The notes below the pieces were generated by a model, which was not told where the DNA came from, made no database searches, and saw nothing but the letters and a program-made list of their open reading frames with translations. A stretch of DNA of 64,000 nucleotides from Dromaius novaehollandiae (lineage: Eukaryota; Chordata; Aves; Casuariiformes; Dromaiidae), in NCBI RefSeq assembly GCF_036370855.1, contig NC_088101.1:5835501-5899500 (forward strand), given 5' to 3'. Each line of letters starts with the position of its first letter. The stretch's first letter is position 1. A program made the translations under genes and the position numbers. This document shows, piece by piece, positions 11,501 through 14,500 of this stretch.

Positions 11501-14500
11501 TTTTAAATGAGTCTTCAACCACCCCACCAAAAACCCTCCTCTCTTTTAGCACCATCCCCCATAAAACAAGCCTGCCGAGTTCCCTTACTAGACCACGATC
11601 GAGCCAAGCCACTCTCTCAAAGCCAGAAATTATCTCATTTCCGTAGTACTTTTAAGGTGAATTTGCTCTGTGAACTCCTGTTTAAAGAAAGCCAGTTCAA
11701 ATTTCACATATTCAATTCCTTTATCCTGAATCACAGATTTAACAAAGGAAACAATAAGTTACTGCACCTCTTCCAACAAATGGCTGTAGCATAAACCCTA
11801 ACTCAGGTTCTCTTCTCGCCAATAAGGCCAATCTATTTCAATTTCAATCCATTAAAGATGGACTGATAGACAAAATGCACAGCATTTGAACAATAAAAAT
11901 AAGACATACATCAACAGCTGGTTTGGCTGCATCATTCTATTTTTCATCATACTCTTTCTTAACAACACTACAATTTAAAAACAATGACAGGTGCCTGGAC
12001 TTCTTTACGTAATCTGTATGAGTAGACACCATCACACTTCTCCTTTGTCACCTTCCATTTATTTAGGCATTTTGTGGTTTTCACTTTCTAAACATGTTCA
12101 GCAGAATTATTTCTGTAACATACAAGGTTCAAAGCGTTATCTGTGAGCTCATTTAGTAAACAAAACATAAGGACTACAAAACAAAGAGACAACACTGGCT
12201 ATTGCACCACCTGGACAAAATTAAGTTACATACAGGTAGTCAAGAATATTTTCTAATAAATGCTTAGAATATTTTCTAATAAATAAAAAAGAATATTTTC
12301 TAATAAATATTTTCACTTGTCGCCTTATATACAAAGCAAAAGTCTTTTCAGTTAGACATGGAACTAAGTTCAGTTTTCTATAAAGTTACCATCCTGTCCC
12401 CTCTTGCATCTTCCCCTCCCAAAATGCCACATTTCCCAGGGCGCCTGAGCAGACAAAAGCACATTCTGCAGCTTGCCTTTTAGCTGCCATATGCTAGCTG
12501 ACAGGCCTCCATGAGGTGCGCAGGCTGGCTGGTCAAGTGCTGCTCACCACTGTATGTCACTTAGAAGCTCCATACCTCTCCCTTAATGAACAGTGATCTG
12601 GATCCATCTCCTTCGCCCATACCCAGCTTTAAATTGCCTGGAGAATTCAGAGGTTATTAACGAGTCCTCCAGTACGCTAAGCCAGGTAACCAGGAGTTAC
12701 TGTGGCTCCTCAGACATTTTTTATTTCATTAGACAGTACAACAGAAGTACTCTAAATTGCCCAAGTGTTGAAAGACAAAGCCAGGAGAAGAAGGAAGCAG
12801 GGGAAAACTAGACACATAATTGTGATGAAGTTAACCCCAAACATCTCATCCCCCTACTTATCCATAATTCAGAAAGAAATCAAGGGACAGGAAAAAAAAA
12901 AAAAAAAAAAAAAGCTTTTTTTGCTCTAGATGTACTACAAAGAGTACTGAGACATAGCCTACTTTCACATTTTCAAGCAGTGGGCTTCCCAAAACAGTGC
13001 ACCTTGACAGTGATTACCATTCAAGCCAAAAGGAGATTTGCTGTAGCCAAACTTCTTCCTTTTCTTTCCCCCAAACCACAAAACAGTCTCTAGTCTCGCT
13101 GGGTACAAATACAGTATTGGACAAAAGATGACACCCTTACCTTGCAGTTTAGTGGAGAAGGCTGAAAGGCTGGGTTTTCCTTGTATCTATCCTAATTACC
13201 ACAGCACAAATGGGATGAGATTTTCAAATGTACTCAGTGCCATTCAGGCAGCTAAAAGCAGCAGCTGGATTTCTTGAGCAAAAGCTTCTACTCAACAGCA
13301 GGAATGACAGAGGAATAAACGCTTTGGGAAATCTGGCTCTCATAAGTCAGACAGTTTTGCAATGTTAACTAGTCTGTGTTAACAGGAAAATCTAAAAAAG
13401 AGAGTTTTTGGAGACTAGGACTATGTGTATGAACTAGAAGAACAAATGAAAAGTTCAGCTTCATTCCTTGGAACTATCCTCCAAGATAGAAAGAATTTGC
13501 TTAATTTATAAATTAAAACTTCCTCCCAAATAGGAAAAAAACTCAAACAAGCAAACAAACAAATTCAACTGACATTAATATATAGCGAGTTCTTCTAATC
13601 ACTCCCATGGGGAGGTGCTATGCAGATCTCCTGTTTTCTAGGAATGGCAAAAGAGCCCTGCAGGCCTTTGCACCATGCAAGTACCACACATCAAGAGTTG
13701 AAAATTATTGAAGCTACTGCATACCTTGAAAATTATCTTTGCAACCTTTTTGTCTCTGTGTACACTTAAAATAATGAGCAAAGCTCTTCAATTACACAAA
13801 AACTTACACTACACAAAGCACACACTGATGCAGTCATTCTTGAAACGAGCATTCCAGAGTAGTCAAACTTGTACATTTTGGTTCGATACTTCCTTGAGCG
13901 AACACGTACGTATCCAGCAACCTGTCTGTTGGAGGTGTGACCACTCACTGAGATTAAAATTCTTTCTTTGCATGCACTTCTTATAAAAAAATAAAGACTG
14001 CATGCAAAGAAAGAATTTTCTTTAATTTTTAGTGCACTGATCAAGAAGATGCTGGGTTTTTTTATTTTTATATTTTTAATCCCAAACTGGAAGAATTTAA
14101 TCTCAGTGAGTGGTCACACCTCCAACAAACAGGTTGCTGGATACGTACGTGTTCGCTCAAGGAAGTATCGAACCAAAATGTACAAGTTTGACTACTCTGG
14201 AATGCTCGTTTCAAGAATGACTGCGTCAGTGTGTGCATTTAAAAAAAAGCTCTCAACAGCTTTGTTTTTCTTTTTCAGCCCAAAAATCTGTGACGCTGAA
14301 TACAATAAGACAACTCTTCAAGAATGGCAACCTTCAACACCACTCACTGGAACGAGACTACATCCATTTACCAATACTTGGGCTTTCAAGTGCAAAAAAT
14401 TTACCCTTTCCATGATAACTGGAATACAGCCTGCTTTATTATTTTGATTATATTTATCTTTACTGTAGTTTCCCTGGTGGTGTTGGCTTTCCTCTATGAA

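What the first reader, a model, noticed from the sequence alone, without database searches (positions are those of the whole stretch)
13818..14236. Near-perfect 145-bp inverted repeat just upstream of SMIM18, with a second hairpin nested in it
Seen directly: arms 13818-13962 and 14093-14236 differ by two bases and one single-base gap, with a 130-bp spacer. A perfect 21-bp inverted repeat (13956-13976/13999-14019) sits at the inner boundary. This region lacks any recognised transposon ends or target-site duplications. RNA from either strand (GTF2E2 intron or SMIM18 primary transcript) would fold into a long double-stranded stem ending 42 bases before the SMIM18 3' splice site. Inference: the structure arose by fold-back/template-switch duplication seeded by the short hairpin. 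It is either recent or kept identical by gene conversion, and it could affect SMIM18 splicing or be an RNA-editing substrate. The alternative is an assembly fold-back artefact.
Basis: partly seen in the sequence, partly recalled or inferred. Interest (0 to 1): 0.7.

Follow-up and report, generated by a model that had tools for sequence, protein, structure and literature searches.

The report
Single-copy fold-back palindrome in GTF2E2 intron
An animal genome (probably a bird's) carries, beside a small membrane-protein gene and inside a larger gene's intron, one long mirror-image DNA hairpin that was probably made by a copying slip during DNA replication; it is in the assembly as described but most likely has no selected function.

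Summary
The inverted repeat is in the sequence as described. The arms, 13818-13962 and 14093-14236, differ by two substitutions and one 1-base gap. Chance is excluded: the longest exact arm is 96 bp, against at most 15 bp in 40 simulated windows.

The "nested" 21-bp hairpin is better read as the apex of the same palindrome. Its left side continues arm A; its right side is separated from arm B by 71 bp (14020-14090), with an imperfect 8-bp direct repeat, AAGAATTT, at the split. RNA from either strand folds as one stem with that segment bulged.

Searches of the 1.47-Gb assembly found the arm only here, twice, which argues against a transposon family. GTF2E2 exons on both sides place it in a GTF2E2 intron, 42 bases before the putative SMIM18 3' splice site.

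Best reading: a local replication template-switch (fold-back) duplication, apparently some million years old, then split by a short insertion or made by serial switching. Splicing or RNA-editing effects are untested. No orthologue, read or RNA data were available, so an assembly artefact is unlikely but not excluded. Ordinary in kind; unusually long.

The parts
13815..13964 (+). Left arm (A) of the long inverted repeat; continues to 13976 as the left side of the apex hairpin
14091..14240 (-). Right arm (B), reverse complement of A (97.4% over 151 columns; 2 substitutions, 2 gap openings)
   Evidence: only two places found in the whole assembly, both here
13956..13976 (+). Left side of perfect 21-bp apex hairpin (overlaps the inner end of arm A)
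   Evidence: search of 13950-14025 found only this place, on both strands
13999..14019 (-). Right side of the apex hairpin; read as the inner 21 bp of the right arm of one continuous palindrome
   Evidence: folds as one stem
13977..13998 (.). 22-base loop of the perfect hairpin (partly pairs; 6-nt terminal loop in the imperfect extension)
14020..14090 (.). 71-bp AT-rich segment splitting the right arm; imperfect 8-bp direct repeat AAGAATTT at 14011-14018 and 14091-14098; insertion or natively copied sequence
   Evidence: bulged in both RNA folds
14277..14278 (+). AG of the putative SMIM18 3' splice site, after a pyrimidine tract; 42 bases (14237-14278) lie between the arm end 14236 and exon base 14279
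   Evidence: sequence, (usage inferred)
14324..14617 (+). SMIM18 coding sequence in one exon, 97 aa plus stop
   Evidence: Pfam PF15831 SMIM5_18_22, E 1.9e-23
19901..20062 (-). GTF2E2 exon, residues 1-55 of the PDB TFIIE-beta chain (upstream side of the intron holding the repeat)
   Evidence: E 8.4e-16; coordinates converted by hand from query residues
6641..6736 (-). GTF2E2 exon, residues 56-87 of the same chain (downstream side of the intron holding the repeat)
   Evidence: E 2.1e-10; coordinates converted by hand from query residues

Best explanation
A lineage-specific fold-back duplication made by DNA-replication template switching. A nascent strand copied about 150-160 bp of local intron sequence back as its reverse complement and then returned to the original template, leaving one palindrome (left side 13815-13976, loop 13977-13998, right side 13999-14019 plus 14091-14240). 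The right side is split by 71 bp, either inserted later with an 8-bp target duplication, or native sequence copied between two serial switches with 8 bases re-copied. In RNA it forms a long, nearly perfect dsRNA stem in the GTF2E2 intron (and in SMIM18 pre-mRNA if transcription starts upstream). The default expectation is a neutral, ADAR-editable intronic stem without selected function. Shown: the geometry, the absence of other copies found in the assembly, the fold prediction and the intron location. Inferred: template switching, the order of events, age and lack of function.
For: Whole-genome searches of the element, of arm B and of the hairpin find only this place, so the arm was probably copied locally and not brought in by a repeat family. 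The two strongest inverted repeats of the window overlap by 9 bases and run on from one another, which a single event explains. Overlap of the two right-arm pieces: 8 bases with one 1-base gap allowed, reached by 0.07% of 100,000 shuffled inserts. Both strands fold as one continuous stem with the split segment bulged, MFE -319.4 and -327.5 kcal/mol, against shuffle means of -112.8 and -123.2. Template switching is documented as a source of perfect inverted repeats (PMC7954356, PMC8794818).
Against: The copied tract (about 150 bp) is longer than the maximum of 128 (median 12) in the gold-standard great-ape event set of PMC7954356 (1503 events). Without a gap the overlap at the split is only 3 bases, which chance gives in about 5% of shuffles, so the 8-bp duplication rests on one assumed T-run indel. 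The arms are CpG-rich (observed/expected 0.73-0.87, window 0.21), which ordinary local intron sequence would not predict. No orthologue shows the empty site or which arm is ancestral. The genome search skips very common words and scores only its best candidates, so single-copy status is strong but not absolute.
Confidence: 0.66

Rival explanations
1. Non-autonomous foldback DNA transposon or MITE with about 145-bp terminal inverted repeats and a 130-bp centre.
For: Long terminal inverted repeats around a short AT-rich centre give the right overall shape; CpG-rich arms could fit a recently arrived sequence.
Against: No second copy of element, arm or hairpin found in 1.468 Gb (that tool skips very common words and simple repeats and scores only its best candidates); no matching bases flank the outer ends (ACACAAA up to 13817, ATTTAAA from 14237); the short hairpin continuing the left arm is not expected of a MITE.
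Confidence: 0.07
2. Assembly or library fold-back artefact: one real arm, the other made by inverted chimeric reads or consensus error.
For: Fold-back chimeras are a known error class in amplified or long-read libraries (recalled, no call); near-identity of the arms and a single locus fit.
Against: Arms differ by two substitutions and an indel, one arm is split by 71 bp that pairs with neither arm, and sequence that does not pair follows on both outer sides. The window has no N and lies in an 88-Mb contig, though read support could not be seen.
Confidence: 0.1
3. A selected RNA hairpin: a young hairpin-RNA/microRNA precursor or a structure tuning SMIM18 splicing.
For: Very stable fold on both strands; template switching is reported to have created microRNA loci (PMC8794818); the stem ends 42 bases before the putative SMIM18 splice acceptor.
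Against: No Rfam family reaches its gathering score in the window; the 28 weaker hits in 13000-15500 are all below their cut-offs and mostly echo the hairpin shape (best RF04205 66.8 bits against 139.7). No expression or conservation data. The putative polypyrimidine tract lies outside the arms.
Confidence: 0.1
4. Insertion of a foreign or distant sequence (mRNA fragment, viral piece) that duplicated on arrival.
For: CpG enrichment of both arms; one reading frame is open through both arms (stop-to-stop 150 aa and 115 aa); a sub-threshold Pfam match to the coatomer beta platform (19.9 bits, cut-off 32.7, E 7.8e-4).
Against: The Pfam match is lost when the arm alone is searched (where only a sub-threshold LMBR1 match at E 0.08 appears) and leans on the AT-rich spacer; PDB searches up to E 10 list no coatomer; no exact match of two arm patterns in viral contigs or of one in genome contigs, no confirmed relative of the arm frame in viral contigs, no phage match, and no other place in this genome at protein level. 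These collections are not of animal genomes, so an animal source is not excluded.
Confidence: 0.07

Closest known systems
Short-range template-switch mutations (four-point model; PMC7954356, section 8 first part and passages read; PMC8794818, abstract and first part of Results read)
   Same: Local reverse-complement copy beside its source, not found elsewhere, forming a near-perfect hairpin
   Different: Copied tract about 150 bp, beyond the 128-bp maximum of the great-ape gold-standard set; right arm interrupted by 71 bp with an imperfect 8-bp repeat; no ancestor sequence to prove it
Long perfect inverted repeats of eukaryotic genomes (survey PMC13155455, passages only; longest one found in human has arms of 140 bp)
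   Same: Long, nearly identical arms
   Different: That survey counted perfect arms with spacers up to 8 bp; here the arms are imperfect and the spacer is 130 bp (22 bp for the apex)
MITE / foldback DNA transposons (recalled)
   Same: Long inverted repeats around a short centre
   Different: No other copies found, no target-site duplication at the outer ends
Inverted-repeat (e.g. inverted Alu) dsRNA in introns edited by ADAR (recalled; review PMC11263572 seen only as listing and abstract start)
   Same: Intronic arms that would pair in pre-mRNA
   Different: Arms are a unique local duplication, more alike than typical repeat pairs (recalled)

Membership tests
Template-switch (fold-back) duplication | One arm is a reverse-complement copy of adjacent sequence | tested here: met
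Template-switch (fold-back) duplication | Sequence not found elsewhere (local source) | tested here: met
   with the search tool's caveats
Template-switch (fold-back) duplication | Ancestral/outgroup locus lacks one arm | not testable with these tools
   no related animal genome held (own genome has no relatives here)
Template-switch (fold-back) duplication | Tract length in the documented range (typical, not a strict limit) | tested here: inconclusive
   about 150 bp lies outside the great-ape range (max 128, median 12; PMC7954356); no bird range known to me
MITE / foldback transposon | Multiple dispersed copies | tested here: not met
MITE / foldback transposon | Target-site duplication at outer ends | tested here: not met
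   flanks read
microRNA or hairpin-RNA gene | Match to a curated RNA family (supporting, not defining) | tested here: not met
   0 matches at gathering score
microRNA or hairpin-RNA gene | Processed small RNAs | not testable with these tools
   no RNA data
ADAR editing substrate | Long near-perfect dsRNA in a transcribed region | tested here: met
   fold; within a GTF2E2 intron, (transcription itself inferred)
ADAR editing substrate | A-to-G clusters in RNA reads | not testable with these tools
   no RNA data

The most novel reading that the evidence does not exclude
One replication-error event created a new long hairpin-RNA locus inside the GTF2E2 intron and against the SMIM18 splice acceptor, which now is processed into small RNAs or alters SMIM18 expression in this lineage.
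Probability: 0.06. Interest if true: 0.55.

Novelty: new member of a known kind. Interest (0 to 1): 0.27.

Why it matters
It is a clean, probably young example of a long local fold-back duplication in an animal genome, longer than any event in the gold-standard great-ape set, with an informative scar (a split arm with an imperfect 8-bp repeat). If relatives show the one-armed ancestor, it would document a single-step birth of a long dsRNA-forming locus in the intron of GTF2E2, a general transcription factor gene. As it stands it changes no general view.

Tried and rejected
Transposon or MITE: rejected on copy number and outer flanks. Coatomer-beta pseudogene: rejected, because the sub-threshold Pfam hit vanishes with the arm alone and PDB searches list none. 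Viral or bacterial source: no match (exact patterns of 23-24 bases or blastn; 28 stretches matched a pattern, none confirmed, plasmids, gave 5 records with 37-38-base matches at E 0.2-0.6, taken as chance). Known RNA family: none at gathering score. The split segment as a copy of other window sequence: only short matches, best E 0.048 (queried as 14020-14091); its own genome-wide search did not complete, though the 501-base search covers it.

Dating: 2 substitutions in 147 bases give about 3-6 million years at assumed bird rates of 1.2-2.5e-9 per site per year (rates recalled; Poisson range about 0.3-20). This is an apparent age only, void if the arms are homogenised.

Background sample: 264,000 bases (window plus 20 stretches of 10 kb from C1-C4). 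Of the 20 stretches, 19 had no listed inverted repeat of 30 or more aligned bases within 1 kb, and 1 (L019) had three self-complementary tandem units. Low-complexity pairs were filtered and not counted. The sample is too small to give a rate.

Papers opened and not used: PMC4057610 (abstract and outline) and PMC4449034 (a term search without hits). Other listings were used only to choose papers.

Full report
Observation. The sequence holds the inverted repeat as written. BLAST aligns 13815-13964 with the reverse complement of 14091-14240 (151 columns, 97.4%). The ungapped core is 141 bp with substitutions at 13829/14225 and 13926/14128, and a single-base gap lies near 13959. The longest exact arm is 96 bp. 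In 40 Markov-1 sequences of the same length the longest was 15, and it was 15 in the window once 13815-14240 was taken out. Neither the long repeat nor the perfect 21-bp hairpin (13956-13976 / 13999-14019) is chance.

Anatomy. The two repeats overlap at 13956-13964. Arm A plus the hairpin's left side form one run, 13815-13976. The right side matches that run from 13999 to 14019, breaks, and resumes with AAGAATTT at 14091. The intervening 71 bp (14020-14090) are AT-rich and match nothing else in the window beyond short stretches, best E 0.048. The two right-hand pieces overlap by 8 bases if one base of a T run is gapped (0.07% of 100,000 shuffled inserts do as well) but only by 3 without a gap (about 5%). 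So a target duplication, or re-copying after a second switch, is suggested but not proven. Folded as RNA, each strand forms one continuous stem with this segment bulged: -319.4 kcal/mol on + (shuffles -112.8, sd 5.6) and -327.5 on - (shuffles -123.2, sd 6.6); 0 of 100 shuffles did as well in each case.

Genome context. The window lies on contig C4 of a 1.468-Gb assembly of 271 contigs. Searches with the 501-bp element, with arm B and with the hairpin found only this place, with the tool's caveat that very common words are skipped and only the best candidates are scored. SMIM18 is confirmed by Pfam (E 1.9e-23). GTF2E2 exons on the minus strand match the PDB TFIIE-beta chain (human, as recalled): residues 1-55 at about 19901-20062, 56-87 at about 6641-6736, then about 5940-6053 and 3882-4076 and 2473-2577; Pfam TFIIE_beta agrees (E 3.4e-10). 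The repeat and SMIM18 therefore sit in the roughly 13-kb GTF2E2 intron between residues 55 and 56. Coordinates were converted by hand from query residues.

Mechanism. A local reverse-complement copy, found nowhere else in the genome, without duplicated outer flanks, is what template switching makes. PMC7954356 (section 8, first part of two, and passages read) reports that the majority rearrangement patterns generate single inverted repeats, with a median copied length of 12 and a maximum of 128 in its gold-standard set of 1503 events, so about 150 bp is long for the class. PMC8794818 (abstract and first part of Results read) reports microRNA loci that appear to have arisen this way. PMC13155455 (passages only) reports 140-bp arms as the longest perfect inverted repeat with a spacer up to 8 bp in human. 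The most likely present role is none: an intronic dsRNA stem, probably edited when transcribed. That step is inference.

Evidence against. The arms have 5 and 6 CpGs per 148 bases against a window mean of 1.24; 2.5% of 148-bp windows reach arm A's count. Ordinary intron sequence would not predict this. An exon, promoter, conserved element or foreign piece might, but family, structure and collection searches gave nothing at threshold, and those DNA collections are not of animal genomes. The only notable hit, coatomer beta platform at E 7.8e-4, is below its cut-off and vanishes with the arm alone. No relative, read or RNA data could be consulted.

Verdict. New member of a known kind; modest interest. 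The library held 11 papers naming SMIM18 (listing and abstract starts only); no title or abstract start shown there was about an inverted repeat at this locus.

Noticed in passing
L019 (G000:C4:4000001-4010000): GC-rich (67.7%) tandem array with a period of about 3.2 kb, copies 99.3% identical, each holding an about 820-bp stretch that is 83% identical to its own reverse complement.
   Followed up: partly
13815-13964 and 14091-14240: Both arms are CpG-rich (observed/expected 0.73 and 0.87, measured over 13815-13962 and 14093-14240) in a CpG-poor window (0.21), not explained without orthologues.
   Followed up: partly
about 26968-27174, 32155-32268 and 36527-36676, minus strand: Exons of WRN lie upstream of GTF2E2 in the same orientation: a PDB WRN chain matches at residues 1270-1338 (E 3.2e-14), with Pfam HTH_40, RQC and a just sub-threshold HRDC. 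As recalled, human WRN is farther away and on the other strand, so gene order may differ here.
   Followed up: no
13769-14113 minus strand: A 115-codon open frame across hairpin and arm A gives a sub-threshold match to the coatomer beta appendage platform (19.9 bits, cut-off 32.7); probably chance.
   Followed up: partly
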